From Terriglobales bacterium (GTDB lineage: Bacteria; Acidobacteriota; Terriglobia; Bryobacterales; Bryobacteraceae), in NCBI GenBank assembly GCA_027485675.1, contig JAIXQP010000007.1, positions 310,001-374,000 of the forward strand: a stretch of DNA of 64,000 nucleotides, read 5' to 3'. Under the pieces are notes generated by a model that saw nothing but the letters and a program-made list of their open reading frames with translations, did not search any database and was not told the origin of the DNA. Positions 20,798 to 40,978 of this stretch are shown here, piece after piece; position 1 is the first letter of the stretch, and every line of letters starts with the position of its first letter. The position numbers were made by a program, and so were the translations under genes.

Positions 20798-20916
20798 GAT
20801 GACAAAAAGATAGTGGGCGGCCGAGGGATAAATCTCCCGGGAATGCCGGAATCGGACTGAGAGAAATCCGAGGGCGGAGCACCTATTCATGGAAGCTCCG
20901 AATCCTATTGCCGACT
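20798..20916. promoter_or_regulatory. divergent intergenic region between lasso B1 and Wzi-like gene
   Basis: About 120 bases between two divergently transcribed operons (lasso B1-B2-nucleotidyltransferase leftward, polysaccharide export rightward). It must hold promoters for both directions; no confident -35/-10 pair or operator could be assigned by eye. Confidence 0.35.
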
Positions 20917-24797: not shown

Positions 24798-24804
24798 GGG
24801 AGCT

Positions 24805-27245: not shown

Positions 27246-28152
27246 GGAATACCTCGGGAAGGGAGTTGACGGGTTCCGCGGCGAGGAGCCGGGCAAGACC
27301 TTCGTCCAGCGACACGGTGGGGCGCCAGCCGAGCAGGCGATGCGCGGCGGTGAGGTCGCCCCGCAGATGGGGACGGTCGGAGGCGCGGACGCGGGCGGGG
27401 TCCACCGTCACGGTAATGTCGCGGCCGGTGAGCCGCGCCAGGCTATGGACGATGTCGGCGGCGGTCCATTCGCCCGGGCCGGGCACATTGCAGACGCGGG
27501 CGGTAACCGGCGAGAGCGCCATGCGGGCGAGCGCCTCAGCGACATCGGTGACGTAGACGTAGCTGCGATAGGTGGAGGTATTGCCGAGCTGGATGCGGTT
27601 AGCGCCGGCGCGGAGTTGATCGCAGAGGACGGGGATGAGGTGGGGGTTCGTTTCGCCGGGGCCGTAGACGTTGAAGAGCCGGGCGATGGAGTAGCGCAGG
27701 CCGGAGGACTTCACCAGTTGCTCGCCGAAGTGCTTCGTGATGCCGTAGATCTCGCTGGGCGCCGGACGATCGTCTTCGTGGTGGTAGCGGTCCGTGGTGT
27801 CATAAACGGCGGCGGTGGAGGCAAAGACGAAGTTTGGCTTCGTTTCGCAAAATGACGCCGCGGCCAGGACGTTCTGGGTGCCTTCCACGTTGATGCGGAG
27901 GGTCCGGGAGGGCTCGCGTTCGCAGTCCGGTATGAAATGGAGGGCGGCCAGATGCACGACGGCATCCGGGCGGAACCCGCGCATGGCGGCCTTTAGCGCC
28001 GGGGCGTCAAGGATGTCTCCGACGTGGTCGTACGGGCCCGGGCGGCCCGTCGAGAGATTGTCATAGACCAGCACTTCGTGCCCGGCTGCGGCCAGACGAT
28101 TGGTCAGATGGGCGCCGACGAAGCCGGCCCCCCCGGTGATCATGATTCGCAT
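27217..28152 (-). CDS. NAD-dependent epimerase/dehydratase (UDP-sugar 4-epimerase-like)
   Basis: A 311-residue short-chain dehydrogenase-type sugar-nucleotide enzyme. The Rossmann motif ITGGAGFVGAHLTNRLAAAG lies at residues 5-24, and the catalytic Tyr-x-x-x-Lys is YGITK; a Ser/Thr-rich FASTAAVYDTTD segment precedes it. The length and motifs fit UDP-glucose/GlcNAc 4-epimerases, although dehydratases cannot be excluded. It supplies an activated sugar for the polysaccharide encoded around it. Its start lies inside the 3' end of the methyltransferase gene (92-base overlap), which is longer than usual for this operon. Confidence 0.9.
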   Translation of the reverse strand: MRIMITGGAGFVGAHLTNRLAAAGHEVLVYDNLSTGRPGPYDHVGDILDAPALKAAMRGFRPDAVVHLAALHFIPDCEREPSRTLRINVEGTQNVLAAASFCETKPNFVFASTAAVYDTTDRYHHEDDRPAPSEIYGITKHFGEQLVKSSGLRYSIARLFNVYGPGETNPHLIPVLCDQLRAGANRIQLGNTSTYRSYVYVTDVAEALARMALSPVTARVCNVPGPGEWTAADIVHSLARLTGRDITVTVDPARVRASDRPHLRGDLTAAHRLLGWRPTVSLDEGLARLLAAEPVNSLPEVFHATAAMAAS

Positions 28153-29053
28153 AATGCTCCTTCAGGGCGATGAACCAACCCTGCACCTGGTAGCGGCAGC
28201 GATCGAGCCGCCACCAGCGCAGACGCTGGCGGAAAAGGGATTCGAGACTGGCGAGATCCGGCGCGACGGGCGCGGCGGAGACGTTGGCCTGTTTGCGGGC
28301 CACGACGCGGAGGCTGCATTCGAGCAGCGGGGTTTCGAGCTCTTCGAGTTTTTCGACGGCGAAACCGGCGCGTTCGACCACATAGCGAAGGGAGTCCGGC
28401 AGGAACATCATGGGATGCGCCAGATGGATCATGCCGAGTCCGCGCCAGTGGCCACGGAGATTGGGGACCTCGACGAAGAGCGTGCCTCCTTCGGCGAGTT
28501 GGGCGCCGAGCGCCCGCAGGGTTTCGACGGGGTTGACGCAATGTTCGAGCACGTGAAACGCGGCGGCGTGCGTATAGGGGGCGGCGGGGCGGGGCAGATC
28601 CTCGAGGGAATTGGCGATGATACGGCCTCCGAGTTCGCGGCAGATGCGGTGGCAAAGCGTGGAGGGCTCCACTCCGGCGGCATCGACCTGAGGCAGCGTG
28701 GCGAGAGCGCGCAGGAAGGCTCCATCGCCGGCGCCGAGTTCGAGGACGCGCGAGCCCGGCGGGAGCAGTTCGCGATAGGCTTCGATGCGGCGCAGGGCCG
28801 TGTCGGCGGGGATGTTCTGGTGGGCGATGAGCCGGGCGCGGGAGGGGAAGTAGGTTTCGTAGGCGTGCTCGTAGAAGTCCGCGTAGGCGGCCGCGGTGGG
28901 GCGGGGATTGAGATAGAGCAGCCCGCAGCGCAGGCAGAGATCGGTGGCCAGGCCGAGGCCATGCCGGTCGTGGGCGAAGAGAGTACGGCCTTTGCGGGAC
29001 CCGCAGGCGTTGCAGCCAGTGGATTCGAGAGTCGGTTGCCAGCGGGAGGTCAT
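28061..29053 (-). CDS. class I SAM-dependent methyltransferase with N-terminal zinc-ribbon-like cysteines
   Basis: A 330-residue protein. The N-terminus has two CxxC pairs (CNACGS and CLRCGLLYLNPRP), a zinc-binding module common in sugar methyltransferases of polysaccharide loci. The SAM-binding motif I is VLELGAGDGAFLRALA, and AAFHVLEHCVNPVETL is the methyltransferase-type post-motif. It probably methylates a sugar or sugar nucleotide. The gene starts at an ATGA overlap with the asparagine synthetase stop. The C-terminal 30 residues (EHYANHDHRGGRLRRR onwards) are basic and lie over the epimerase start, so a frameshift or late stop there is possible. Confidence 0.85.
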   Translation of the reverse strand: MTSRWQPTLESTGCNACGSRKGRTLFAHDRHGLGLATDLCLRCGLLYLNPRPTAAAYADFYEHAYETYFPSRARLIAHQNIPADTALRRIEAYRELLPPGSRVLELGAGDGAFLRALATLPQVDAAGVEPSTLCHRICRELGGRIIANSLEDLPRPAAPYTHAAAFHVLEHCVNPVETLRALGAQLAEGGTLFVEVPNLRGHWRGLGMIHLAHPMMFLPDSLRYVVERAGFAVEKLEELETPLLECSLRVVARKQANVSAAPVAPDLASLESLFRQRLRWWRLDRCRYQVQGWFIALKEHYANHDHRGGRLRRRPSDQSSGRSRARSAGL

Positions 29054-30951
29054 GCGGCTTGTTCCTTGTAGCTTGTGAGTTGCTGCTGCCAGAGGGCCAG
29101 GGAGACGGGTAGCCAGTAGCTCTGTTCGGAGAAGGGCGCGGCCGTGGCGGCGCGCCAGGATTCGGGCTGGAGGTAGCGGGTGAGGAGGGGGTTCCCTTCC
29201 ACCTGATGGACGGCGGAGGAGAACCAGGTCTGTTCGGCCATGCCAAAGCCGAGCTTGGCGCGATTCCAGACGACCTGACCGGGCAGGCGGCTGGCCAAGG
29301 CGCTGCGGAGGGCGTACTTGCTGAAGCCGTCGCGGAAGCGGTCTTCGTCCGGCAGGTTCAGGGCGTACTCGACCAAGCGATGGTCGAGGAAGGGCACGCG
29401 GGCTTCCATCGAGACGCGCATGGAGTTGCGGTCGAGATGGCGGAGCAGCTGCGGCAGATTGAAGCGGGTGAGATCGGCTTCGAGACGATCGCGAAGGGAG
29501 CCTCCGGTCCACTGTTCGTGCCAATCGGCGGCGCGGCTGCGGTAGGCATGGAAGAAGTCCGGCCGGAGCAGGCCGGCGACCGGGCGGAGGCGGCGGAGCA
29601 GGCCGAAACGAAGCGGGGCGGGGAGCCAGGCGGCGGCGCCTTTGGCGAAATGGTGGGCGGTGGCGGAGAGGCCAATGGCCCGGGCGTTGTTCCAGAGGGC
29701 CGCGGGCGGGGCGTTGCGGAGAAGGACCGGCAGATGGACCCGGACGTATCCGCCGAGCAACTCGTCGCTGCCTTCGCCGGTCAGGATGACCTTGATGCCG
29801 TCGCGTTGCCGGATGTGGGCGAGAAGCGAGAAGGACGCAAAGATGGAGCTGTTATGAAACGGCTGCTCCTGGCAGCGGATGAGTTCCGCGAGGCCGGTCT
29901 CGAAGCTGGCGCGGTCGGCGGGGATGAGTTGCGCGTCGGTGTGGCGGAGAGTGGCGAGGGTCGCTTTGATGTTCGGCGACTCGTCGTAAGGATGGCCGGC
30001 GGGATAGACGCTCGAGTAGCTGCGCAGCCGCTGGCCCTGGGCGCCGAGCATTTCATCGGCGAAGGAGACGATGGCCGACGAATCGAGGCCACCGCTCAGG
30101 AAGCTGGCGACGGGAACATCACTCCGGAGCCGGAGGCGAACGGACTCGGCCAGATGGCGGCCGAGTTGGGTGCGATCGGCGGCGGGCAGACGGGGGATGC
30201 GGTACCAGCGGCGGGGCGATTGCGCTTGGCCGGCGTGAACGCGGACGGAATGCCCGGGCAGGAGTTGGCGAACGCCCGGATAGAAGGTCTGCTCGGTGTG
30301 GTCGGCGAGGCCGAACAGGAGAAAGTCCCAGGCGAGGGCGTCGGTGTCGCCATCGGGCAGCGGGCCCAGGGTGAGGAGCGGGCCAATCTCCGAGGCGGCC
30401 CAGAGCTGACCGTTGGGCAGGCTGCGCAGGTAGACCTGCTTTTCGCCGAACCGGTCGCGGGCGAGGAGCAGGGATTGCGAGGCGGGGTCCCAGAGGGCGA
30501 AGCCGAACATGCCATTGAGCCGGGGCAGAGCCTCCTCGCCCCAGATGGATCCGGCGCGGAGAAGGACTTCGGTGTCGGACCCCGAAAGAAAGGGGCCGGG
30601 CAGCGTTTCGCGGAGTTCCTGGTAGTTGTAGATTTCGCCGTTGAAGGCGAGGGCGTGGCCGGAGAGGGGATCGACCATGGGCTGATGGCCGGCGGCGGAG
30701 AGATCGAGAATGGAGAGCCGGCGGAAGCCCATCGCGGCGACGGCCGGTTGGACCGCGGTGCTGACGAACGGGAGATGGCTGAGGGCCGCGATGGTGTCGC
30801 GGCCCCGGAAGCGGGTGGAAGTGGCGGAGAGGGCCAGGTAGCCTTCGTCGTCCGGGCCGCGGTGGCGCAGGAGTTGCGTGGCCCTTTCAAGGCGGGCATA
30901 GTCGGCGCGGCCCAGCGGGCAGGCGCTGCTGACGGTAACGAATCCACACAT
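29050..30951 (-). CDS. asparagine synthetase B-type, glutamine-hydrolysing (class II amidotransferase)
   Basis: A 633-residue protein that begins Met-Cys2 (MCGFVTVSSACPLGR), so the glutaminase nucleophile is present, and has the conserved RHRGPDDEGY and GFRRLSILDLSAAGHQPM segments. The ATP-pyrophosphatase loop is SFLSGGLDSSAIVSFADEM. It is thus a canonical AsnB architecture, unlike the cysteine-less homologue at 38.4-40.2 kb. Within polysaccharide clusters such enzymes amidate uronic-acid carboxyls or other glycan acids; free asparagine synthesis is also possible. It lies 4 bases after the flippase gene and overlaps the methyltransferase start. Confidence 0.9.
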   Translation of the reverse strand: MCGFVTVSSACPLGRADYARLERATQLLRHRGPDDEGYLALSATSTRFRGRDTIAALSHLPFVSTAVQPAVAAMGFRRLSILDLSAAGHQPMVDPLSGHALAFNGEIYNYQELRETLPGPFLSGSDTEVLLRAGSIWGEEALPRLNGMFGFALWDPASQSLLLARDRFGEKQVYLRSLPNGQLWAASEIGPLLTLGPLPDGDTDALAWDFLLFGLADHTEQTFYPGVRQLLPGHSVRVHAGQAQSPRRWYRIPRLPAADRTQLGRHLAESVRLRLRSDVPVASFLSGGLDSSAIVSFADEMLGAQGQRLRSYSSVYPAGHPYDESPNIKATLATLRHTDAQLIPADRASFETGLAELIRCQEQPFHNSSIFASFSLLAHIRQRDGIKVILTGEGSDELLGGYVRVHLPVLLRNAPPAALWNNARAIGLSATAHHFAKGAAAWLPAPLRFGLLRRLRPVAGLLRPDFFHAYRSRAADWHEQWTGGSLRDRLEADLTRFNLPQLLRHLDRNSMRVSMEARVPFLDHRLVEYALNLPDEDRFRDGFSKYALRSALASRLPGQVVWNRAKLGFGMAEQTWFSSAVHQVEGNPLLTRYLQPESWRAATAAPFSEQSYWLPVSLALWQQQLTSYKEQAA

Positions 30952-30955
30952 AGAG

Positions 30956-32260
30956 TTAGTAGGCTTTCCTCCAGATTTCAGGCCGCCAGAACCAGACGAA
31001 CCCTATGACGATGCTGCTGCCCAGGGCGGCGGGATACCAGCCGCGGTGCACGAGCTCATAGACCCCTCCGCCGGCCACCCAGCACGCCAGCAGGCGCAAG
31101 GCGAAAGCCGGAGGAATTCTCGCGAACCACAGTTGCAGCAGCCAGGGAAAGAGCACGACGTTGGCCAGGGACCAGGAGCCGGCGACGCCGAGGAACGGCG
31201 TGGCGGCCGCGTAGAGCAGAGTGAAGGCCAGCTTCCAGCCGAAGACCGCGCGATGCCGATGGGCGGCGATCATGGCCGAGGAGATGATGCCCCAGCAGCA
31301 GGAGGCCAGCAGGAAGCCGGGCAGGGCGAGGACGATGGCCCACGAAGCGGGAGTCCAGGCTTCACCGAAGAGCAGGCTCAGCCAGAGGGGGCTCCAGCCG
31401 GCGAAGAGGGCGAGCGGATAGCCGGTGAGCCGCGTGAGCTGTTCGAGGTGGGTGAGGGTAATCGGAAGGAGGTCCGGATCGACCAGGCGTTGGCGGCCGT
31501 AGAGCGGCAGGCCGAGGCGGGGAATGGCGGCGGTGAGGAAGAGCGCTTGCCGGTAGAGCCGGAAGGCCAGTTCGACGTAGGCGAGATGGACCGGCGTCGT
31601 GAACCGGGCGCCGACCAGCGACGCGATGGAACCGGAGAGCACGCTGAGAACGCTATTGCCGATATTGGCGAAGGCGAAGCCGCGCACGCGGCGCCACGTG
31701 GCGCGCCGGAACTGCAGGCTTACGGGAACGGGACAGAGAACAAAGGCCAGCACACTGGGCAGGGCGCCGCGCAAAACGAGAGCGGCCAGGACGCCCAGCC
31801 GGGTCTCACCGGCCCAGGCGCCGGCAATGGAGACCACGGAGAACAGCACCGTTTCGAGCAGTTCCACCAACATGACGCGATGGAAGGCGAGGTCGCGTTC
31901 GAGTAGAGCGATAGGTACGGCGCGCCAACTGAGAAAGTACACCGCCGCGGCGGCGGAAAGGCGCAGGTCCATCTCCCCAGGAGAGAGGGCGAAGAGCAGG
32001 AGCGCGAGGGCAACGGCCATGGCGTGTTGGAGGGCGAAGAGACTTTCGAGATCCCACTCTTCGGGCTCACGGACCAGCCACGTGGCGAACCCCCGCGTCG
32101 CGAGGTCCGAGGAACTGACGTAGAGCAGGAGCGGCACGGCGAATTGGCCCCATTCTTCGGGGGTGAGGAGGCGCAGAAGAATCACGCCTCCCAAAAAGTT
32201 CACCAGCATGGCGCCGCCATAGCGGATGGCCAGCCAGAAGTAGCCCGCGGAAGCGATCAT
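30956..32260 (-). CDS. oligosaccharide flippase (Wzx-like, MATE/MOP superfamily)
   Basis: A 434-residue very hydrophobic protein with about a dozen membrane segments. It begins in the RfbX/Wzx style (AIRYGGAMLVNFLGGVILLRLLTPEEWGQFAV). Flippases of this family move undecaprenyl-linked oligosaccharide repeat units across the inner membrane for Wzy-type polymerisation. It lies directly downstream of the WecG-like gene, overlapping by 4 bases, and just upstream of the asparagine synthetase gene. With the ligase/polymerase-like gene, the SLBB channel and the Wzz-like protein it makes a complete Wzx/Wzy-type export route within the window. Confidence 0.88.
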   Translation of the reverse strand: MIASAGYFWLAIRYGGAMLVNFLGGVILLRLLTPEEWGQFAVPLLLYVSSSDLATRGFATWLVREPEEWDLESLFALQHAMAVALALLLFALSPGEMDLRLSAAAAVYFLSWRAVPIALLERDLAFHRVMLVELLETVLFSVVSIAGAWAGETRLGVLAALVLRGALPSVLAFVLCPVPVSLQFRRATWRRVRGFAFANIGNSVLSVLSGSIASLVGARFTTPVHLAYVELAFRLYRQALFLTAAIPRLGLPLYGRQRLVDPDLLPITLTHLEQLTRLTGYPLALFAGWSPLWLSLLFGEAWTPASWAIVLALPGFLLASCCWGIISSAMIAAHRHRAVFGWKLAFTLLYAAATPFLGVAGSWSLANVVLFPWLLQLWFARIPPAFALRLLACWVAGGGVYELVHRGWYPAALGSSIVIGFVWFWRPEIWRKAY

Positions 32261-33072
32261 GCGCGACGAGCTCCGCGGAGGAGTTCGCGGCCCAGGAGAA
32301 GCAGAAAGGCGGAGTTACTCGTGATGTAGCGCCAAAGGAGCCGGCGCGGTTCCTGAATCAGCCGCCAGGACCATTCGAGTCCGGTGCGTTGCATCCAGGC
32401 GGGAGCCCGTTCAACGTTGCCCGCCCAGACATCCATCGCGCCGCCGACTCCGATGCCGACCCGGCACCCGGTGGCCGGGAGATGTTCGGCGAGGAAGAGC
32501 TCCTGACGGGGCGATCCGAGTCCGGCAATGAGGAGTTCCGCGCCAGAGGCGGCGATGGCCGCCCGGATGAACAGGGGGTCGGCGAAGTAGCCGTGGTGGG
32601 TGCCGACGATCTGCAACGAGGGATTCTGCTTCGTGAGTTCCGCGGCACAGCGGGCAACCGTGGACTCCGTGCTGCCAAGCAGAAAGACGCGATGACCCTG
32701 AGCGGCGCAGTGGGCCAGGAGGGCCCAGGTGAGGTCGATGCCGGTGACGCGTCCGGGCAGGGGCTTGCCGAGCGCCCGAGCGGCCAGGATGACGGACTGT
32801 CCGTCGGCGACGATGAGGTCGGCGGCGGCGTAGGCATCGGCGAAGGCAGCGTCCCGGCGGACGCGGCTGATGTGGTCCGCGTTTAAAGTGCAGACAAACG
32901 TCGGAAAGGGCCAACGCAGGGCGTTGGCGAGGTAGGTTAACGCATCGTTCTGGGAAATGGCCGCCACAGGCAGGCCGAAGAGTTCAACTGCTGGAGCAAG
33001 TAGCCGTGCGGCCAGTGCCGCTTCCGATCGCGCCGGATTGGAAGTGGTGATAGATGGAACGGATGCGCGCAC
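32257..33072 (-). CDS. WecG/TagA/CpsF family glycosyltransferase (GT26)
   Basis: A 271-residue GT26-family protein: the NADHISRVRRDAAFADAYAA region, LIVADGQSVILAARALGKPL, RVTGIDLTWALLAHCAAQGH and LGSPRQELFLAEHLPATGCR with GVGGAMDVWAGNVERAPAWM are the diagnostic blocks. These enzymes transfer a sugar such as ManNAc(A) or a glucosyl-type residue to a polyprenol-linked intermediate. The start is uncertain: the GTG at 33072 overlaps the upstream glycosyltransferase gene by 89 bases, and no ATG is available closer to the first conserved block. Confidence 0.88.
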   Translation of the reverse strand: MRASVPSITTSNPARSEAALAARLLAPAVELFGLPVAAISQNDALTYLANALRWPFPTFVCTLNADHISRVRRDAAFADAYAAADLIVADGQSVILAARALGKPLPGRVTGIDLTWALLAHCAAQGHRVFLLGSTESTVARCAAELTKQNPSLQIVGTHHGYFADPLFIRAAIAASGAELLIAGLGSPRQELFLAEHLPATGCRVGIGVGGAMDVWAGNVERAPAWMQRTGLEWSWRLIQEPRRLLWRYITSNSAFLLLLGRELLRGARRA

Positions 33073-34084
33073 CGTTCACCTCCCACGTGAAGTTTTCAAG
33101 AATCGTTTGGCGGGCGACGGCGCCGAGGCGGGCCAGATCGGCCGAAGAGCAGCGGCGGATCAGCGAGATGAGTTCGGGGAGATTGTGGGGATCGAAGAGG
33201 AAGCCGTTTTCGCCGGAGCGAATGAGATAGCGGGTGCCGCCCGAAGCGGCTGCGAGGACGGGACGCCCGGCGGCCATGGCCTCGAGCGCCACGGTGGGGA
33301 GCCCTTCATAGGCGGAGGGGAGGACGAACAGGCCACAGCGGACGTAAGCCGCGGCGAGGGTTTCGTCGTCGACTTCGCCGAGGAAGTGGACGCGGCCCGA
33401 GAGGCCCAGCGAGTGGGCTTGGGCTTCGAGAGTGGCGCGATGGCCGCCGTCGGGACCGATGAGGGTGAGGTCGTGGCCCGGGAGCTCGGCGAGGGCGGCG
33501 AGCAGGAAGTCGACCCGCTTGACCGGATCGAGGCGGCCGACGAAGAGCAGCGAGTGGGGCGAGCCGGGCAGGGGAGACGGCGCGGCTTCCGGCAGGCGCA
33601 GGGCGTTCGGGATGACGCGGAAGTTCTGGGCGGGGGCGCCGAGGAGGATGGCATCGCGCTTGTCGTTTTCTGTGAGCGCGATGAGGGTGCCGGCAAGCTG
33701 GAGGCCGAGCCAGCCGAGGGTGGAATCGAAGACGCCCTTTTTGAGCGCGGAGGACCAGGAGTGGGCCGGGTAGTAGCAGTGGGCGGTGAAGACGGAGGGG
33801 ATGCCGAGCCGGCGGGCGGCGAGGAGGCTGCACGCGGCGAAAGGGCGGCGGGCGCCATGGGCGTGGATCACATCCGGCGCGAACCGGCGGAGTGCGAACG
33901 GCAGCGCCAGGGTCGAGGAGAGGCGCTGGACGGGAATATCGTGCCAGGCATCGGGGCCAGGGGTGCGGGTGAGGATCTCGACTTGATCCCCATAGGCGCG
34001 GAGTTCGCGGGCGAGATTGCCGACGTGTTGTTCGAGGCCTCCCCGCAGGGGAAAGAAGCTATTGGTGACCAGGGCGATCCGCAT
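32984..34084 (-). CDS. glycosyltransferase family 4 protein
   Basis: A 366-residue GT4 enzyme starting at the ATG at 34084 (MRIALVTNSFFPLRGGLEQH), which contains the acceptor-side GGLEQHV loop. The C-terminal domain has the nucleotide-sugar motif with the E-x7-E pattern (PSAYEGLPTVALEAMAAGRP). A shared 26-base overlap with the ligase gene and an 89-base overlap with the WecG-like gene indicate one transcript. It adds a sugar during assembly of the repeat unit; linkage and donor are not predictable. Confidence 0.92.
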   Translation of the reverse strand: MRIALVTNSFFPLRGGLEQHVGNLARELRAYGDQVEILTRTPGPDAWHDIPVQRLSSTLALPFALRRFAPDVIHAHGARRPFAACSLLAARRLGIPSVFTAHCYYPAHSWSSALKKGVFDSTLGWLGLQLAGTLIALTENDKRDAILLGAPAQNFRVIPNALRLPEAAPSPLPGSPHSLLFVGRLDPVKRVDFLLAALAELPGHDLTLIGPDGGHRATLEAQAHSLGLSGRVHFLGEVDDETLAAAYVRCGLFVLPSAYEGLPTVALEAMAAGRPVLAAASGGTRYLIRSGENGFLFDPHNLPELISLIRRCSSADLARLGAVARQTILENFTWEVNGARIRSIYHHFQSGAIGSGTGRTATCSSS

Positions 34085-35420
34085 GGGGCTCCTGAGAGGG
34101 AATCGAGATGGCGCGCATGGCGAGGCCGGCGAAGAGAAAGAGGGGAGCGGTGCCCGTGAAGCCGAAGATGCTCTCTGAGAAGAGCGCTCCGCAGGCACGG
34201 CCGAACAAGGCCGCCGCGAGAGCCGCGGCGAGAATGTTTTGCTGCGCAGTAGCGCCGCGGACGAGCGTGACCACCGTTGCGCCGAGAAAGCCCAGGAAGA
34301 GGAGCACGGAGAGGAGGCCCGCCTGCCCCATTAGGGCCATGTAACTGTTCTCGCCTACGCCCTCCGCGGAGACACCTTCGAGATGGGCGTAGCCGCCGGC
34401 TTGTCCGATGCCGCGGCCGAGTAAGTATTGGTCCAAGTTCTCGATAGCCTCCTGCATGAACTGTGTGCGCACGGAGGCGGAACTCTCCTGACCAGTTACA
34501 GTATTTGTCAAGAGTTCGGACCCAAGGGTACTTAGTACTAAGCCGCCGAAAATGGCCCAGAGCGCAAGGGAACCGATGCGGGCATGGTGCTCGCGGCGGA
34601 TCCATGCCAGCAGGCCGAGGGCGAGCAGCGTGGCAAAGATGGACTCGCGATGGACGGAGAGGGCAAGAGCGCCCATAAAGAGGGCAAGCAGCGGCAGCCA
34701 CCGGCGGCGCCCGGAGGCGACGAGGGCGGCGACATATACGACCGGGACGACGCTGGCTTGTCCGAGCGAGTGGGGGTCGCCGTAGAAAGAAACCATGCGG
34801 CGCATGCCGTGCATGATGTGGTTGGCCCAGAGGCCGAACTGGTTGCTGTTCTGGTCCGGTTGCAGACCTTTGACGTCAACGAGGAAGCCGCCGATCTGCA
34901 CGACCAGGCTCCAGAATTCGAGGGGGAGAAAGAAGAGTTCAAAGAAGCCGAAGGCGCAGACGACGCCATGGGTGATGAGGAGGACGCGGAGGAGGGAGGG
35001 CGCGGCGTCGACCTGAAGGAGACGGCCGGCGAAGTAGGCGAGCGGCGGCGTGATGAGATTGCGGAAGGCGCTGAACTGGGTTTCGGCGGAGATTTGCGTC
35101 TCGCCATCGCCGATGCCGAGGGCGAGATACAGCGTGAGCAGAACGGAGTAGGCGGCCAGGAGGAGGTCGGCCAGGTGCGACTCTCCGAGGCGGACGCGCT
35201 GGCGGAGGGCATTGCCGGCCAGGCTCATGCCGAGAAGGCCGTCCTTGATGGCGATGAGACCGCGGACCGTTTCCGCGCCCACGGCGAACTGGGCGTAGAG
35301 AAGGGGCGGGAAGAAGTTAGAAAAGGGCAGCCAGACGAGGAGAATGGCGGCTTGGCGGGCGGGATGGAAAAGCCCGCCGGCCGTGATGGCGGCAGCGAGG
35401 AGGGCGAAGAGGGGGCTCAT
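34059..35420 (-). CDS. O-antigen ligase / Wzy-like polymerase family membrane protein
   Basis: A 453-residue integral membrane protein with 10 or more hydrophobic helices and a large periplasmic loop (about residues 290-350, containing RTQFMQEAIENLDQYLLGRG and GENSYMALMGQAGLL), which is the arrangement of O-antigen ligase/Wzy polymerases (PF04932). It starts at the ATGA overlap with the sulfotransferase stop. A much longer frame upstream reads over the sulfotransferase and kinase genes and is spurious. It would polymerise or ligate the repeat units of the polysaccharide. Confidence 0.88.
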   Translation of the reverse strand: MSPLFALLAAAITAGGLFHPARQAAILLVWLPFSNFFPPLLYAQFAVGAETVRGLIAIKDGLLGMSLAGNALRQRVRLGESHLADLLLAAYSVLLTLYLALGIGDGETQISAETQFSAFRNLITPPLAYFAGRLLQVDAAPSLLRVLLITHGVVCAFGFFELFFLPLEFWSLVVQIGGFLVDVKGLQPDQNSNQFGLWANHIMHGMRRMVSFYGDPHSLGQASVVPVVYVAALVASGRRRWLPLLALFMGALALSVHRESIFATLLALGLLAWIRREHHARIGSLALWAIFGGLVLSTLGSELLTNTVTGQESSASVRTQFMQEAIENLDQYLLGRGIGQAGGYAHLEGVSAEGVGENSYMALMGQAGLLSVLLFLGFLGATVVTLVRGATAQQNILAAALAAALFGRACGALFSESIFGFTGTAPLFLFAGLAMRAISIPSQEPHADRPGHQ

Positions 35421-36241
35421 TGGGTATAGCCGAAGCGGGCGATGGTGGCAGCGTGACGGTGGGCGATCTGCGCGGATTGATCGGGGGTGAGGACGTCCCG
35501 CCAAGCGCCGGCGCGGCCTTGACGGAAGAACTTGGCGGCCTTTGCGGGTTTCTCGTCGAAGCCGCCAGCGTCCTCTTGCGCCCGCAGGCGCTGGAAGGAG
35601 CAGGCCTCGATGGCGGTGTGCAGCCGGGCTTCGTCGATGGAGTAGCCGCAGGCTTGAAGCAGGGCGGCGAAGGTGGGGCAGGGGCTGGCCAAAAGGTCTT
35701 CGTAGCGGGTGATGTGTACGGGGATGGCCGTCTGGTCGGCCCAGGAGGCGACATGGCCGGACCAGGAGCCGTAGAACTGCGGGAGTTGGGGCTTGCGTTC
35801 GGTGATGGTGCGGGAGGCGACATAGGTTTCGTCGGCGAGGATGGAGATGGTCTCGGCGACGGAGCGTCCACCATGGGCGGCGTACGAGACGGCGACATCC
35901 CACGGGTTGCGGATGATGTAGAGGACCAAGCTGGAATTGGCCGGGGTGAACAGTTGGGGATCGTATTGATCGTGAACCTTGAAGAAGTGGCCGGGCTGGC
36001 GATGGGCGACGCGGTCGTACCAAGCGTTGCGGAGCGCCGGGATTTCGTGGGGGAGGAGGAGGTCGCTTTCGCCGCCGAGGGCGTGGTCGAAGAGCGGGCG
36101 GGCCGCGGCGATGGGAATTGCTTTGAAGTCGTTCAGGGGGACCGTGGCTCCGGCGGGGGCGAGATAGTTGAGGAGCAACGCGCGGACCCAGGTATTGCCG
36201 GATTTGGGATAGGAGGCGATCCAAGTGAGGCGGCGTCTCAT
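35417..36241 (-). CDS. sulfotransferase domain protein (PAPS-dependent)
   Basis: A 274-residue cytoplasmic sulfotransferase. The 5'-phosphosulfate loop is WIASYPKSGNTWVRALLL at residues 7-24 and the 3'-phosphate site is LYIIRNPWDVAVSYAAHGGR. Such enzymes move sulfate from PAPS to hydroxyl or amino groups. The gene is coupled through 4-base overlaps to both neighbours: the lasso-type kinase upstream and the O-antigen ligase downstream. It therefore sits exactly at the junction between peptide and polysaccharide genes, and either the lasso peptide or the glycan could be its acceptor. Sulfotransferases have been found in lasso clusters, but the position does not decide between the two. Confidence 0.9.
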   Translation of the reverse strand: MRRRLTWIASYPKSGNTWVRALLLNYLAPAGATVPLNDFKAIPIAAARPLFDHALGGESDLLLPHEIPALRNAWYDRVAHRQPGHFFKVHDQYDPQLFTPANSSLVLYIIRNPWDVAVSYAAHGGRSVAETISILADETYVASRTITERKPQLPQFYGSWSGHVASWADQTAIPVHITRYEDLLASPCPTFAALLQACGYSIDEARLHTAIEACSFQRLRAQEDAGGFDEKPAKAAKFFRQGRAGAWRDVLTPDQSAQIAHRHAATIARFGYTQ

Positions 36242-37125
36242 GGCAGTTGAGCGATGACAGCGTCGGCGAGTTGGCCGACGGGGAAAGGACTTTGGGGACG
36301 GGAGATGCGGAGGACGCGTGCTTGCTGGGCCAGCGGAGCCAAATGGGGCGGGGAGGCGCCGGCGCCGCGGAAGGCGGGCACGAGGTTGGCGCGATAGACC
36401 TGATCGGCGAGAGCGCCGAGCTTGGCAAAGCCGGTGACCGGGGTGAGGGACAGTTGGCGGGGAGCGTTGGCGGTGAGGAGGAGGACGGCGCGGACAGGCA
36501 GCGGGGTGAGGTGCGCATCCCCCATGGGCACTTCGAACTTGGGGAGGTGCGGGCGTACGGCGAGAAGGCTGTCGGTGGCGATGGAGAGCTGGGAGGCGGC
36601 GTCGGCCCAGAGCTTGAGGCGGGGGTAGCCGGGATAGACCGTGATGGCGCCGGCCTCATCGGGGCCGAGGGCGCAGATATCGTCGGCGATGACGGGCATG
36701 CCGCGGCGGCGGAGTTCGGCGCAAAGGGTGGACTTGCCGGCGCCGGAGGGACCGGCCACGAGGATGGCGCCGGAGGGGGTAGCGACGGCGCTGGCATGGA
36801 GGACGAGCGCACCGCGCTGGTGCAACAGAGCACCAAACACGGAGCCGAACAGGAACAGGCGAATCGACTGCGGGTCCGCATTGGCAGCCGGTTCGATGAT
36901 GATTTGGCGGCCGCTACTGACGAAGTAGCGACCGACCGAGTCGAGGTGGAAGAGGTAGCCTTGCGGTCCAGCCTGGTAGCAGAGGCCGGACTGGCGGACA
37001 TCGTCGAGTTGGTTGGGGGTGGGCCCAACGAGGACCTGAACATCGCTGGGGCCGGCGGCCAAGGCAGGAAGAGAGCCGAGGTCGAGGGTGGAGCGGATTT
37101 GGAGTCCAAAGGCTTGGTAGCGCAT
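36238..37125 (-). CDS. HPr kinase-like protein, predicted lasso peptide C-terminal kinase
   Basis: A 295-residue protein homologous to the C-terminal half of HPr kinase/phosphorylase. The Walker A loop is LVAGPSGAGKSTLCAELRRR and HASAVATPSGAILVAG precedes it, as in other HprK-related proteins; PVIADDICALGPDEAG is the acidic Walker B-like segment. The N-terminal 110 residues are a separate small domain. In paeninodin-type lasso clusters such kinases (PadeK, ThcoK) phosphorylate the C-terminal serine of the precursor. Here the gene lies 7 bases downstream of precursor A1, and all five precursors end in serine, so that role is predicted. Translation is coupled to the sulfotransferase by an ATGA overlap. 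Confidence 0.87.
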   Translation of the reverse strand: MRYQAFGLQIRSTLDLGSLPALAAGPSDVQVLVGPTPNQLDDVRQSGLCYQAGPQGYLFHLDSVGRYFVSSGRQIIIEPAANADPQSIRLFLFGSVFGALLHQRGALVLHASAVATPSGAILVAGPSGAGKSTLCAELRRRGMPVIADDICALGPDEAGAITVYPGYPRLKLWADAASQLSIATDSLLAVRPHLPKFEVPMGDAHLTPLPVRAVLLLTANAPRQLSLTPVTGFAKLGALADQVYRANLVPAFRGAGASPPHLAPLAQQARVLRISRPQSPFPVGQLADAVIAQLP

Positions 37126-37146
37126 GAGAGGGTTACGAACTGAAGG
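37091..37146 (-). repeat. tandem duplication copy A (kinase 5' end plus end of precursor A1)
   Basis: This 56-base stretch covers the first 12 codons of the kinase gene, the 7-base gap and the last codons of precursor A1. By eye it matches copy B at 37364-37419 at 49 of 56 positions. The offset of 273 bases equals the distance between the stop codons of A1 and A2. Confidence 0.85.
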
Positions 37147-37294
37147 TGATGCCGTCCGGGATCGATCCAGTACCGGAAAAGGCTGTTTCGGTGATGGGCA
37201 GCTTTTCGAGTTGGGGCGGGGCCCACTCTGTTCGATTGACCTCTTCTTTGGCTGGGGTTTCCGGTGTGGGATGTTGTGCTTCGGGGCTAGTCAT
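37133..37294 (-). CDS. lasso peptide precursor A1 (predicted)
   Basis: A 53-residue peptide from the ATG at 37294; a GTG at 37321 would add nine residues that the other four precursors lack. The leader contains W-A-P-P-Q-L-E-K-L-P (residues 24-33), matching the YxxPxL-type B1-recognition motif with Trp in place of Tyr. The Thr at residue 37 fits the Thr(-2) rule. The predicted core from residue 39 is FSGTGSIPDGITFSS, with Asp at core position 9 and Ser at the C-terminus. Phe at position 1 is unusual; an 8-residue ring starting from the next Ser is the alternative. The kinase gene follows after 7 bases. The mature product is unproven. Confidence 0.78.
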   Translation of the reverse strand: MTSPEAQHPTPETPAKEEVNRTEWAPPQLEKLPITETAFSGTGSIPDGITFSS

Positions 37295-37363
37295 GGAATG
37301 CTCGTTGGGTTTGAGGGACACAGGGGCTCAGGAGGCAGCTGGGGCGAGGGCGCGCCGAACTGG

Positions 37364-37419
37364 GAGCGGATTTGGCGTCCACAGGCTTGGTGGCGCACGA
37401 GAAGGTTATGAACTGAAGT
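37364..37419 (-). repeat. tandem duplication copy B, fossil of kinase 5' end after precursor A2
   Basis: This copy follows the precursor A2 coding end. Read on the minus strand from the GTG at 37401 it gives VRHQACGRQIRS, against MRYQAFGLQIRS at the real kinase start, then diverges into an unrelated frame that stops inside the A1 start. It is a non-functional remnant of the kinase gene, left by a duplication of precursor plus kinase 5' end. Confidence 0.8.
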
Positions 37420-37567
37420 CGATACCGTCGGCGTCACTTCCCGTATTGGCAGCGGCTGTGCCGGCAACGGGAAGTTTGTCGAGTGCGGGCGGGGCCCAGT
37501 CTGGTTGAGCGAGGTCGTGGGCGACCGGCAGTTCTGGTGTTGGGCTCTGGGCTTTGGGATTGTTCAT
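37406..37567 (-). CDS. lasso peptide precursor A2 (predicted)
   Basis: A 53-residue peptide from ATG 37567, the same length as A1. Its leader starts MNNPKAQSPTPELP and contains W-A-P-P-A-L-D-K-L-P (residues 24-33). The Thr lies at residue 37, and the predicted core from 39 is AANTGSDADGIDFSS, with Asp9 (Asp7 is a further option for the ring) and a terminal Ser. Ala at position 1 is a known lasso first residue. The gene is followed by the remnant of the kinase start rather than by the kinase itself, showing that A1 and A2 arose by tandem duplication. Confidence 0.78.
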   Translation of the reverse strand: MNNPKAQSPTPELPVAHDLAQPDWAPPALDKLPVAGTAAANTGSDADGIDFSS

Positions 37568-37613
37568 TGGGTTCCGGTTGGGTTCTGGGGGCCCGCGGGT
37601 TGCGCCCGGTGGA

Positions 37614-37766
37614 TCAGGAGAAGAAGACGCCGTCGTCGCCGTTCTGGCTGCCCGTATTCGCGGTTTCGGTGACTGGTAGTTTCTGAAGTTCGGGCGGCGT
37701 CCAGGGTTCGGAAGCCGTCTCGGGCGGTGTCGTTGTTTCGGGGGATGAGTGGAGTGGATTGGTCAT
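37614..37766 (-). CDS. lasso peptide precursor A3 (predicted)
   Basis: A 50-residue peptide from the ATG at 37766. The leader has PWTPPELQKLPVTETA (residues 21-36), in which Thr35 occupies the -2 position. The predicted core from residue 37 is NTGSQNGDDGVFFS: Asp at positions 8 and 9, terminal Ser, 14 residues. Its ATG overlaps the stop codon of a 40-codon frame upstream as ATGA, so translation may be coupled to that frame. The start context CTCATGA is shared with A4 and A5. Confidence 0.77.
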   Translation of the reverse strand: MTNPLHSSPETTTPPETASEPWTPPELQKLPVTETANTGSQNGDDGVFFS

Positions 37767-37885
37767 GAGTTTTCGTGCCTCAGGAGAAAGATCGACCGGC
37801 TGCCCGCTTGCGACGCTTGGAGTCCTTCGTCTAGTGCGGATTCGGAGCCTGCTTCACCGGGTGGGTTGGGGGAGACGTTGTTCAC
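37763..37885 (-). CDS. small unknown peptide between precursors A4 and A3
   Basis: A 40-codon frame starting with GTG at 37885 and ending in a TGA that overlaps the A3 start (ATGA). It has the best ribosome-binding site in the array: AGGAG, 6 bases before the GTG, lying across the stop codon of A4. The peptide begins MNNVSPNPPGEAGSE, like the MNNP starts of A2 and A4, but then lacks the W-x-P-P leader motif and instead reads LDEGLQASQAGSRSIFLL. It may be a diverged precursor, a leader that couples A4 and A3 translation, or a relic. No family recognised. Confidence 0.45.
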   Translation of the reverse strand: MNNVSPNPPGEAGSESALDEGLQASQAGSRSIFLLRHENS

Positions 37886-37894
37886 GAGAAGCTC

Positions 37895-38053
37895 CTAGGA
37901 AAAAATGCCAGCGTCGTTGACGTTGGTCGGCGAGGCGGCGGCGGTGTCTTCGATCGGGAGTTTGTCGAGGTGGGGCGGCGCCCACTCTTCGGCAGCGACC
38001 TTAGTGGCGGGGAGGGCTTCGGGAGTTTGGTTCTGCTGGTTGGGATTGTTCAT
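37895..38053 (-). CDS. lasso peptide precursor A4 (predicted)
   Basis: A 52-residue peptide from ATG 38053. The leader has EWAPPHLDKLPIEDTA at residues 23-38, nearly identical to A5, so the two are recent duplicates. With Thr37 at -2, the predicted core from 39 is AASPTNVNDAGIFS: Ala1, Asp9, terminal Ser, 14 residues. This is the most canonical of the five by first residue and ring position. Its stop codon is embedded in the ribosome-binding site of the next small frame. Confidence 0.79.
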   Translation of the reverse strand: MNNPNQQNQTPEALPATKVAAEEWAPPHLDKLPIEDTAAASPTNVNDAGIFS

Positions 38054-38146
38054 GAGTTTGGGTAACGTCCTTGCTTCGTTCGATGAGTTGTTTGCGGAAT
38101 GGCGGGCGGCCCACTCAAGCTAGGCACGCCCGGCCGTGGTGGGCTC

Positions 38147-38305
38147 TCATGACAAGAACCCGGCGTCGGCGATGTCGTTCGGGGAAGCGACGGCGGTGTC
38201 TTCGATGGGAAGCTTGTCGAGATGGGGCGGCGCCCAGCCCACCGCGGGGACCTCGGTGGTGGGAAGGATCTCGGGTGCCTGGTTCTGTTCGTCGGGATTT
38301 GTCAT
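38147..38305 (-). CDS. lasso peptide precursor A5 (predicted)
   Basis: A 52-residue peptide from ATG 38305, the first precursor after the cyclase gene (105 bases between). Leader block GWAPPHLDKLPIEDTA at residues 23-38, Thr37 at -2, predicted core from 39 VASPNDIADAGFLS with Asp9, a further Asp6, and terminal Ser. Val at position 1 is unusual; an 8-residue ring from Ala2 is the alternative. No ribosome-binding site is evident, so expression probably relies on readthrough from the cyclase gene or on a leader within the 105-base gap. Confidence 0.78.
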   Translation of the reverse strand: MTNPDEQNQAPEILPTTEVPAVGWAPPHLDKLPIEDTAVASPNDIADAGFLS

Positions 38306-38410: not shown

Positions 38411-40198
38411 TCAGGCCGCCGATTTGCTCACGAGATTTTGCGGCGAGGTCGTGGCGTGTTCGAGGAAGAACCCGCCGGCGAGCCCGCAACAGATTTGAGT
38501 CGTGAGGTTCTGGCGGGTTTGCGGGTTGGTGGCCGAACAGGCGTCGAGGATCGCCCGGCGCAATCGCGGCACGTCGAGGGCCTGGGCGACGGCCGGTTGG
38601 CGGCCGAATCGTTCAAGGGCTTCCATGGCCGCCGGCTGGTTCGCCTGCAGCCGTTGGACGAAGTCGGCGCACTGGAGGCCGCGGCGGCGATTGAGTCGAA
38701 CGATATCCGGCAGCAGGCCCTCCATGGCGCGGCGGGCGGGCTCGCGGCCGGCAAAGAGGTTCGGGGGAATAGCCTGGCAAAGGCGGATGAAGCGGGGGTC
38801 GACGGTGGGGTCGAGGGCCTGGAGGCCATAGGCGCCGGCGAGAGATGTCCAGAGGTACCCGGAGTAGTTGAGGGTGGCCTGCAGCGAGAAGCGGCGGAAA
38901 TCGTGCGCCTGCCGGTATTGATCTTCCGCGTCGAACAGCAATGGCGCGAGGCCCTCGGCGGTGATGATGGAGGGTCGGAGCAAGCAGAACTGCTGCCAGG
39001 CACCGCGCCGGCGAAAGCTGCGGCCGGTCAGTTGCTGCAGCTTGGCTTTGAGGATGTTGCGCCAGGTGGGCGGGCCATGCCAGGACAGGGTGGCGTTGCC
39101 GCCTTGACCATTGAAAATGGCATGGTGGCCATAGGCCTGGGACTCTTCGAGGATGGCGAGGAGCCACACGGAGTTCGCGGTGGCGCGCGCGGCGCCCGTC
39201 AGCACAACGGTCCGCTGGATGGCGGCGACCGGGCAACGGTCTGCCGCGGAGACGAGGTGGTGATCGATGTTGGGGTGCCATTTCGCCACGGCGGTGGCGG
39301 CAGGGCCTTCATCAAGAAACCGGAAGGGATCGAACTTTCCGACGGGGCGGTGGGCCGGAACGGAGGTGAAGGCGCCGAGACGTTGGCCGGAACCGGCGAG
39401 GACGCGAGCGGCCGTCGCGGTGACGGCACCGGAATCGAGTCCGCCGCTTAAGGTGGAGGCGGGTTTCAGCACCGAGCGGACCCGGGTTTCGACGGCGCGC
39501 CGGAAGGTATCTTCAAACTGGAGCTGCAGGTCGTCGGCGGAGCCGCGCAGCGGTTCGACCGGTTCGTGGAGGTCCCAATACCGGATCTTGCGGCAGGAGG
39601 CGGCGGTCACTTCGAGGGCGTGGCCGGCGATGAGCCGATGGACGCCGCGAAAGCCGGTGTCGGCCGACTGATTGGCCAGGATGCTGAGCGAGAGGCCCAG
39701 ACTCTCCCAATTGACTTCGCGGGGCACGCCGGGAACGGCGAGGACGCCATTGAGGTTGCTCGAGCAGGCGAAGCGGCCGGGGACGTGATGGTAGAAAAGA
39801 CCGGCGCTGCCGAAGGGGTCGCGGGCGACGATCATGCGGCGGGTGCGATGGTTCCAGGCGGCGAACTGCCAATCGCCGTGGAGCCGGGTGAGGCAGCCGA
39901 GTTCGAGGCGGAGGAAGGCTTGGAAGGCGAGGGCAGCGTCGGAGATGGTGGCGGGGAGATGGAGCGCTAGGAGCAGTTCGTCGCGATAGTCGAGGCGGGC
40001 GTTGCCGACCCAGGTCCAGCCGCTGGCGGCATCGGTGAACAAACCGGAGTTGCGGCCGCCGGCGGGTTGGACGAAACCCAGCGAGATGCCGTCGGGGCTG
40101 ACGTGTTGGTCATTGGGCGTGCCGGGGGCGGCGACATTGGCCAGCATGGCGGCCAGAGGAGAAGGGCCTTCGAGAAGAGCGGCGCAGATGGAGTTCAT
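38411..40198 (-). CDS. asparagine synthetase homologue lacking glutaminase Cys, predicted lasso cyclase (C protein)
   Basis: A 595-residue AsnB-fold protein that begins MNSICAALLEGPSPLAA; there is no Cys2, so it cannot hydrolyse glutamine in the normal way. The rest of the N-terminal domain is degenerate but recognisable (RLHGDWQFAAWNHRTRRM and DPFGSAGLFYHHVPG). The ATP-pyrophosphatase loop STLSGGLDSGAVTATAARVL is intact. Lasso C proteins activate the side chain of Asp/Glu in the core as an acyl-adenylate and close the macrolactam, and they have this same loss. It lies directly upstream of the five precursors on one transcript, which supports the call. Confidence 0.85.
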   Translation of the reverse strand: MNSICAALLEGPSPLAAMLANVAAPGTPNDQHVSPDGISLGFVQPAGGRNSGLFTDAASGWTWVGNARLDYRDELLLALHLPATISDAALAFQAFLRLELGCLTRLHGDWQFAAWNHRTRRMIVARDPFGSAGLFYHHVPGRFACSSNLNGVLAVPGVPREVNWESLGLSLSILANQSADTGFRGVHRLIAGHALEVTAASCRKIRYWDLHEPVEPLRGSADDLQLQFEDTFRRAVETRVRSVLKPASTLSGGLDSGAVTATAARVLAGSGQRLGAFTSVPAHRPVGKFDPFRFLDEGPAATAVAKWHPNIDHHLVSAADRCPVAAIQRTVVLTGAARATANSVWLLAILEESQAYGHHAIFNGQGGNATLSWHGPPTWRNILKAKLQQLTGRSFRRRGAWQQFCLLRPSIITAEGLAPLLFDAEDQYRQAHDFRRFSLQATLNYSGYLWTSLAGAYGLQALDPTVDPRFIRLCQAIPPNLFAGREPARRAMEGLLPDIVRLNRRRGLQCADFVQRLQANQPAAMEALERFGRQPAVAQALDVPRLRRAILDACSATNPQTRQNLTTQICCGLAGGFFLEHATTSPQNLVSKSAA

Positions 40199-40204
40199 GG
40201 CGGG

Positions 40205-40978
40205 CTACCAGAGGTTGCGGTTGATGAGCAGCCCTTGACTGGGGAAGAGGGGGAGGAGGGTGAATTCGGGGTAGGTGGCGGTGAACTCGGCGAGGGCACG
40301 ATCAACGCCCCGGCAGCGGCGGTTGACATCGTCGATGACGATGGCGCTGCGCGGGGCGAGACGGGTGCGGAGCCAGGCGAGAGACTCGCACGTGGCGAGA
40401 TAGACATCGACATCGAGATGGCAGAGGGCAATGGGGCCAACGTCGACGCCTTCGGCGGCGGAGGGGAAAAAGCCGCGGTGGACCTGGGCGAAGGGAAAGG
40501 GGGAGAGAAGGTTGCGGACGCGATCGTAGGAGGTGTCGAGGAAGTCGTCCATGCGGAAGAGGTCGTCGTCGTCGGTAAGCGCGGAGAAGCCGCCGGTTTC
40601 AAAGGGATCGAAGCAGTGAAAGTTGCGAGGGGTGGAGCCGGAAGTGATGGCGTTGCAGAGATGGAGGGCGCTGCCGCCTCGCATGGAACCGACCTCGATG
40701 AAAGCGCCGGGGCCAACCTGGCGGGTGTAGTTCCAGAGGTTGGCGAGACGGGCGTGATCGAGGAGCGTGTGAAACTTGACCTGTGCGATGGAGGCCTGAT
40801 AAGCGGGATCGTGGAGCACCTCGACGTTGCCGGTGTCGATGGGCGGATGGAGCAGGCGCCGGCGCTCCGCGGCAAAGCGGTGGCGGCGGAGGGGGGTGCC
40901 GAGCAGATGGAGAACGTCCCATTTGCGCGAGTTGAGCTGCCAGCGCGTCAGATTGTCGGTGAACCAGTTGGCGACCAT
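40205..40978 (-). CDS. TylF/MycF-like class I methyltransferase
   Basis: A 257-residue SAM-dependent methyltransferase of the macrocin O-methyltransferase (TylF) type. The signature is GAFIEVGSMRGGSALHLCNA, with FHCFDPFETGG and the metal-ligand region LCHLDVDVYLATCESLAWLR followed by AIVIDDVNRRCRG. These enzymes methylate sugar or other hydroxyls with a divalent metal. It is the first gene of the long minus-strand operon, 6 bases upstream of the lasso cyclase. It could modify the peptide or a polysaccharide sugar; the position just ahead of the cyclase makes a peptide role attractive but unproven. Confidence 0.85.
   Translation of the reverse strand: MVANWFTDNLTRWQLNSRKWDVLHLLGTPLRRHRFAAERRRLLHPPIDTGNVEVLHDPAYQASIAQVKFHTLLDHARLANLWNYTRQVGPGAFIEVGSMRGGSALHLCNAITSGSTPRNFHCFDPFETGGFSALTDDDDLFRMDDFLDTSYDRVRNLLSPFPFAQVHRGFFPSAAEGVDVGPIALCHLDVDVYLATCESLAWLRTRLAPRSAIVIDDVNRRCRGVDRALAEFTATYPEFTLLPLFPSQGLLINRNLW

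What the first reader, a model, noticed from the sequence alone, without database searches (positions are those of the whole stretch)
37133..38305. Array of five unannotated lasso-peptide precursor genes
Five minus-strand frames of 50-53 codons share the leader block W-[AT]-P-P-x-L-x-K-L-P, then a Thr, then cores that differ. All are too short for standard annotation. They lie between a cyclase-type AsnB homologue and an HprK-like kinase. Predicted cores: FSGTGSIPDGITFSS, AANTGSDADGIDFSS, NTGSQNGDDGVFFS, AASPTNVNDAGIFS, VASPNDIADAGFLS. Seen: the motifs and spacing. Inferred: they are substrates of the cyclase here and of B1/B2 at 20 kb.
Basis: partly seen in the sequence, partly recalled or inferred. 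Interest (0 to 1): 0.88.

Follow-up and report, generated by a model that had tools for sequence, protein, structure and literature searches.

The report
Phosphorylated lasso-peptide precursors beside polysaccharide genes
Five tiny neighbouring genes in a soil or freshwater acidobacterium encode the raw material for knotted, probably phosphorylated, lasso-type peptides, and they share one stretch of chromosome with genes for an export polysaccharide, a pairing recently noticed in unrelated bacteria and whose purpose nobody knows.

Summary
The leader motif sits at -15/-12/-10, the register of paeninodin-family leaders. B1 at 20 kb keeps most residues that grip this motif in the solved PbaB1–leader complex, and B2 is the only PF13471 match in the genome. 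The kinase keeps the His-Lys-Asp-Asp motif of lasso kinases; an NTP-transferase and a sulfotransferase complete a tailoring set. Recognition block and core are under purifying selection; the leader N-terminus is nearly free. C keeps its SGGLDS loop only where precursors exist (5/5); four relatives lacking them have SGGxNS. Best reading: precursors of C-terminally phosphorylated, paeninodin-like lasso or macrolactam peptides, a new acidobacterial variant with a multi-precursor array, very short tails and a locus split around polysaccharide genes. Threading, sulfation and any polysaccharide link are untested.

The parts
38147..38305 (-). Precursor A1: leader MTNPDEQNQAPEILPTTEVPAVGWAPPHLDKLPIEDTA, core VASPNDIADAGFLS (D9, C-terminal Ser)
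37895..38053 (-). Precursor A2: core AASPTNVNDAGIFS
37767..37894 (-). Remnant of a sixth precursor (orthologue of a3 in G001): 72-bp deletion removing the Trp-Pro block and most of the core, start ATG to GTG, stop codon lost
   Evidence: (alignment)
37614..37766 (-). Precursor A3: core NTGSQNGDDGVFFS
37406..37567 (-). Precursor A4: core AANTGSDADGIDFSS
37133..37294 (-). Precursor A5: core FSGTGSIPDGITFSS (ATG start at 37294)
38411..40198 (-). Lasso C-type macrolactam synthetase (AsnB-like), SGGLDS loop intact
   Evidence: (NF033535 2.6e-51, below its cut-off)
36238..37125 (-). HprK-like peptide kinase; H110, GxSGxGK131S, D148-D149 conserved
35417..36241 (-). PAPS-type sulfotransferase (PF00685, YPKSGNTW motif), overlapping the kinase gene
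20501..20797 (-). B1 (RRE, PqqD-like); likely start at Met32 of the 129-aa ORF 20501-20890
20107..20514 (-). B2 leader peptidase (PF13471; NF033537 above cut-off); the only PF13471 match in the genome
19069..20100 (-). Nucleotidyltransferase-like protein (PF14907), the enzyme type paired with phosphorylated lasso peptides
40205..40978 (-). TylF-like methyltransferase, 6 bp upstream of C, conserved in synteny
20908..25950 (+). Exopolysaccharide export genes: Wzi-like, SLBB/Poly_export, Wzz-like
25947..35414 (-). Exopolysaccharide genes on the same strand as the array (glycosyltransferases, epimerase, methyltransferase, asparagine synthase, flippase, WecG-type, GT4, polytopic O-antigen-ligase-like protein)

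Best explanation
The five ORFs are precursors of paeninodin-like lasso (macrolactam) peptides. The RRE protein B1 (20 kb) grips the W(-15)xxP(-12)xL(-10) leader. The HprK-like kinase phosphorylates the invariant C-terminal Ser of the precursor. B2 cuts two residues after T(-2), that is after A(-1). C activates Asp9 (Glu9 in some relatives) and joins it to the new N-terminus, giving a nine-residue ring with a 5-6 residue tail. The NTP-transferase probably adds a sugar to the phosphate, and the sulfotransferase probably adds a further group. Several variants are made by one enzyme set, inside an exopolysaccharide locus with which the genes are co-inherited. Shown here: genes, motifs, selection and co-inheritance. 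Inferred from characterised relatives: every enzymatic step. Speculative: the sulfation target and the polysaccharide link.
For: Core position 9 is D/E and the last residue Ser in 16/16 precursors; two cores use Glu instead of Asp, as an isopeptide acceptor allows. pN/pS between orthologues is 0.80 in the leader N-terminus, 0.24 in the Trp-Pro-Thr block and 0.26 in the core. B1 has PbaB1 (9x90) as best solved relative and keeps Y39, L41, I48, L65, Y69, V71, Q79, F83, L87 and L92 of its leader contacts (contacts from PMC13381572). There is a single PF13471 B2 in the genome. Kinase H-K-D-D motif; literature PMC9266682 and PMC10368454. Gene order is conserved in five genomes. C has SGGLDS where the array exists (5/5) and SGGxNS where it does not (4/4), including L065, which nests inside the array-bearing clade. 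Kinase-sulfotransferase pairs with B1, B2 and C occur elsewhere in the phylum.
Against: The C protein scores far below the NCBIfam lasso cyclase cut-off (175 against 525 bits) and the kinase far below TIGR04352; both are divergent. The tail after the ring is only 5-6 residues, and residue 1 varies (V, A, N, F, S, D), so a threaded product is uncertain. B1 and B2 lie 16 kb from the precursors. No dedicated lasso exporter gene was found among the annotated genes of about 9-49 kb. No expression or mass data exist.
Confidence: 0.82

Rival explanations
1. Macrolactam but not lasso: C closes the Asp9 ring, but the 5-6 residue tail is too short to be held threaded, so the product is a branched-cyclic peptide.
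For: Cores are 14-15 aa with the ring at 9 in all 16 precursors, shorter tails than the characterised lasso peptides I know of (own knowledge).
Against: Bulky residues (F, L, I) at core positions 12-13 could act as stoppers; the enzyme set is that of threaded paeninodins.
Confidence: 0.25
2. Linear phosphorylated peptides of the LPP type: the kinase is the main modifier and no ring is formed.
For: HprK-like kinase, NTP-transferase and RRE are shared with LPP clusters, which also sit beside polysaccharide loci (PMC13381572).
Against: LPP clusters use a SipW-like peptidase and lack a cyclase. Here B2 and C are present, the leader carries W rather than the Y of LPP leaders, and C's SGGLDS loop is kept only where precursors exist.
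Confidence: 0.07
3. The kinase and sulfotransferase belong to the polysaccharide pathway and act on sugars, not on the peptides.
For: The sulfotransferase lies next to polysaccharide genes in the same apparent operon.
Against: Kinase-sulfotransferase pairs next to B1, with B2 and C in three of the loci (L140-L142), recur in other genera. The kinase has the lasso-kinase motif and every precursor ends in Ser.
Confidence: 0.15
4. Chance or decaying short ORFs with no product.
For: One of six copies is a remnant.
Against: Purifying selection on block and core, and conserved arrays in five genomes.
Confidence: 0.02

Closest known systems
Paeninodin / pseudomycoidin / Pba phosphorylated lasso peptides (Bacillota)
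   Same: W(-15)xxP(-12)xL(-10) leader, T(-2), C-terminal Ser, split B1/B2, C, HprK-like kinase, NTP-transferase; paeninodin-like clusters also sit in capsule/exopolysaccharide loci (PMC13381572, PMC9266682)
   Different: Acidobacteriota; up to five (six with the remnant) precursors; 14-15 aa cores with a 5-6 residue tail; variable residue 1; B1-B2-N and C-A-K on opposite sides of about 16 kb of polysaccharide genes; sulfotransferase; no exporter gene found; Ala instead of Gly at the PbaB1 Gly42 position
Bsf-type phosphorylated lasso peptides (Bradymonadales)
   Same: A, B1, B2, C, K, N set (PMC10368454)
   Different: BsfK phosphorylates Ser3, leader YxxPxL with Ile(-2), ring at Asp8
Caulosegnins
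   Same: Several precursors served by one enzyme set (PMC13352647)
   Different: Three precursors; not described there as phosphorylated or polysaccharide-linked
Linear polyphosphorylated peptides (LPP)
   Same: Kinase, RRE, NTP-transferase, polysaccharide context (PMC13381572)
   Different: Signal-peptidase-type leader protease, no cyclase, YxxP leader
Kinase-sulfotransferase-B1-2OG oxygenase-C cluster in G001:C202 and G017:C3 (L059, L058)
   Same: Kinase-sulfotransferase pair, B1, C-like protein, peptide ending in Ser
   Different: No PF13471 B2 found; adds a 2OG-Fe(II) oxygenase; different precursor

Membership tests
Lasso peptide biosynthetic cluster | Leader motif [Y/W]xxPx[LVIAFY] | tested here: met
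   5/5 in the window; 15/16 over five genomes (one has S for W)
Lasso peptide biosynthetic cluster | Thr at leader position -2 | tested here: met
   16/16; register fixed by analogy, cleavage not shown
Lasso peptide biosynthetic cluster | Asp/Glu at core 7-9 | tested here: met
   D/E9 in 16/16
Lasso peptide biosynthetic cluster | B1 RRE | tested here: met
   PF05402 above cut-off; NF033536 59 bits against cut-off 80; 9x90 and TbiB1 best solved relatives
Lasso peptide biosynthetic cluster | B2 leader peptidase | tested here: met
   NF033537 above cut-off; only PF13471 match in the genome
Lasso peptide biosynthetic cluster | C macrolactam synthetase | tested here: inconclusive
   AsnB family with SGGLDS; best NCBIfam model is the lasso cyclase but 175 of 525 bits
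Lasso peptide biosynthetic cluster | Threaded product | not testable with these tools
   needs chemistry; short tail makes it uncertain
Paeninodin-like phosphorylated lasso peptides | W at -15 with P(-12), L(-10) | tested here: met
   register from PMC13381572
Paeninodin-like phosphorylated lasso peptides | C-terminal Ser in precursor | tested here: met
   16/16
Paeninodin-like phosphorylated lasso peptides | HprK-like kinase with His-Lys-Asp-Asp | tested here: met
   H110, K131, D148, D149
Paeninodin-like phosphorylated lasso peptides | Gly at the PbaB1 Gly42 position of the RRE (conserved in Bacillota members, not strictly defining) | tested here: not met
   Ala in the four B1 proteins read (G017 not read in frame); also not the Asn of LPP RREs
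Paeninodin-like phosphorylated lasso peptides | RRE falls in the paeninodin clade of the RRE tree | not tested
   no RRE tree was built; I therefore call it paeninodin-like, not a member of the paeninodin clade
Linear polyphosphorylated peptides (LPP) | SipW-like leader peptidase, no cyclase | tested here: not met
   B2 and C present, no signal-peptidase family hit among scanned window proteins

The most novel reading that the evidence does not exclude
The variable lasso-type peptides, phosphorylated (and perhaps sulfated and glycosylated) at their C-terminal Ser, are parts or regulators of the exopolysaccharide made by the same locus, for example attached to the glycan through the phosphate. 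A peptide-polysaccharide partnership of this kind would have arisen or been kept in both Bacillota and Acidobacteriota.
Probability: 0.15. Interest if true: 0.88.

Novelty: new variant of a known kind. Interest (0 to 1): 0.56.

Why it matters
The function of paeninodin-like phosphorylated lasso peptides is unknown, and their habit of sitting beside capsule loci has been reported only in Bacilli, as far as I could find. A second phylum with the same pairing, conserved gene order in five genomes, and a relative that lost peptide, tailoring and polysaccharide genes together make the link testable. The array gives five natural substrates for one enzyme set, with unusual first ring residues (V, F, N) and very short tails, useful for probing the limits of lasso cyclases.

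Tried and rejected
LPP (linear) reading: rejected because B2 and C are present and the leader carries W. Eight-residue ring: would need L, R or T as residue 1 in some precursors and breaks the T(-2) rule. C as the asparagine synthase of the polysaccharide locus: a separate, better-scoring asparagine synthase (29050-30951, TIGR01536 above cut-off) is there. Promoter/terminator scan: nothing above chance. Weak precursor-profile hits in G003, G023, G040, G071, G074, G076 and G214 (E 0.001-0.09) were not treated as real; only the G003 and G040 contigs were scanned and they gave no precursor-like ORF. A search for precursors by motif in L140-L144 gave only one candidate (L144 at 15) and was not pursued. 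The JBC paeninodin paper is not held, so its details come from reviews. No structure prediction was run: it would not settle threading or binding.

Full report
OBSERVATION. All five ORFs exist on the minus strand as described. Their alignment has invariant W24, P26, P27, L29, K31, L32, P33, T37, A38, D47 and S52. A joint pattern (Trp-Pro-Leu block, Thr, acid ten residues later, terminal Ser) hits only these five in six frames of the window and none in 60 first-order Markov windows. The host genome (6.6 Mb, 97% complete) holds no other significant copy.

GENES AROUND THEM. C (38411-40198) is an AsnB-type protein whose best NCBIfam model is the lasso cyclase, but below cut-off. The kinase (36238-37125) is HprK-related. 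The sulfotransferase (35417-36241) overlaps it. B1 and B2 lie at 20.5-20.9 and 20.1-20.5 kb with an NTP-transferase (PF14907) behind them. Between the two halves lie exopolysaccharide genes: Wzi-like, SLBB export, Wzz-like, glycosyltransferases, a true asparagine synthase, a flippase, a WecG-type transferase and a polytopic protein. From the TylF-like gene (40978) down to 25947 all genes lie on one strand with small gaps or overlaps, so a single operon is plausible (inference).

RELATED LOCI. In the same genus, four more genomes carry the same locus in the same order, with 5 (G001), 4 (G017), 1 (G015) and 1 (G009) precursors between C and kinase. Named records matching these contigs by length are LNFE01000228, CAMDCN010000006 (Candidatus Sulfopaludibacter sp.), JAINDL010000030 and JADCJL010000100. 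Over 16 precursors, core position 9 is D (14) or E (2) and the last residue is Ser. B2 is found at 16-17 kb from the array in each (in G009 the array and B2 are on two contigs that share the two ends of the kinase gene). Of 19 genomes in the genus the same five carry the kinase orthologue, the asparagine synthase, the Wzi-like gene and an adjacent B2. The flanking genes are more widespread: the SelA-like gene in 16 of 19 and the oxidoreductase in 14 of 19. The five are close relatives, so this co-occurrence is not five independent observations.

LOSS AND DECAY. In L065 (Lake Pavin MAG, probably the same genome as G016) array, sulfotransferase, polysaccharide genes and B1-B2-N are gone, the kinase is a trace, and C remains with SGGLNS instead of SGGLDS. 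L065's C nests with G015 and G009 (support 0.996-1.0), so this is a loss within the array-bearing clade. G011, G006 and G012 also keep a C-like gene with SGGxNS and no array. Thus the loop aspartate is retained only where substrates are present: 5 of 5 against 0 of 4, from at least two lineages. In the window itself a sixth precursor has decayed: compared with a3 of G001 it has a 72-bp deletion over the Trp-Pro block and most of the core, a GTG start and no stop.

SELECTION. Pooled over orthologous precursor pairs, pN/pS is 0.80 for the leader N-terminus, 0.24 for the 15-residue recognition block and 0.26 for the core. The peptides are therefore maintained as peptides. Numbers are small and orthology rests on position and similarity.

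RECOGNITION. A 2026 study solved PbaB1 with its paeninodin-family leader and lists the contacts of W(-15), P(-12) and L(-10) (PMC13381572). Our Trp, Pro and Leu fall at exactly -15, -12 and -10. The window B1 has PbaB1 as its best solved relative (E 6e-8) and keeps 10 of its 12 contact residues (Y39, L41, I48, L65, Y69, V71, Q79, F83, L87, L92; T replaces I44 and E75); the discriminating Gly42 is Ala. This ties the remote B1 to these leaders. B1 probably starts at Met32 of the ORF.

TAILORING. Lasso kinases use a His-Lys-Asp-Asp motif and usually phosphorylate the C-terminal Ser of the precursor before cleavage (PMC9266682, PMC10368454); the kinase here keeps H110, K131, D148 and D149 and every precursor ends in Ser. 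NTP-transferases of such clusters lead to hexose on the phosphate in pseudomycoidin (PMC9266682). A sulfotransferase gene has been noted at Firmicutes lasso clusters (PMC8498205) but I found no report of sulfation. In 396 genomes drawn across the phylum, five of the closest kinase relatives (L111, L112, L114, L116, L118) have a sulfotransferase next door, and three of these loci (L140-L142) also carry B1, B2 and C. This favours peptide tailoring over a pure sugar role; it is not proof.

WHAT REMAINS OPEN. Whether a 5-6 residue tail can be threaded; which residue the kinase modifies; what the sulfotransferase acts on; how the peptide leaves the cell; and what it does. PMC13381572 reports that paeninodins and LPPs often co-localise with capsule loci in Bacilli and that their role is unknown. 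The present locus is an independent example in another phylum.

VERDICT. I file it as a new variant of the phosphorylated, paeninodin-like lasso peptide kind. Statements on the shortest known tails and on first ring residues rest on my own knowledge except Asn1 (metanodin, PMC12670498).

Noticed in passing
L065:10001-11788, L107:6551-8227, L108:9805-10923, L109:3240-4361: Orphan C-like genes without B1/B2/precursors, all with SGGxNS in place of SGGxDS; the G011 copy (L107) is a full-length open frame 48% identical to C, so it may be kept for another role.
   Followed up: partly
L059:7300-12930 and L058:6500-12100: Second RiPP-like cluster in two relatives: peptide ending GNGSTS, 2OG-Fe(II) oxygenase, PqqD-like B1, HprK-like kinase, sulfotransferase, C-like protein, no B2 found.
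   Followed up: partly
L140, L141, L142: Kinase-sulfotransferase-B1-B2-C clusters in other Acidobacteriota (in L140 B2 and C are further off); their precursors were not found with the W/Y motif.
   Followed up: partly
L145:2104 and L145:2672: Two related short ORFs ending in Ser (VQKKIWCTPVLIIADVS..., VQKQIWRTPLLIMADVS...) near C, K, B1, B2 and N: a candidate two-precursor cluster in another genus.
   Followed up: no
window 50685-51710 (+): Another HprK-related P-loop protein (TIGR04352 1e-5), 12 kb from the array; relation unknown.
   Followed up: no
window 3929-8638 (+): 1569-aa protein with DUF5724, DUF4132 and DUF7737.
   Followed up: no
window 16916-19062 (-): SelA-like/DgaE-like PLP enzyme and DUF4432 protein directly behind B1-B2-N in the same orientation; the SelA-like gene is present in most genus members without the lasso genes, so probably unrelated.
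   Followed up: partly
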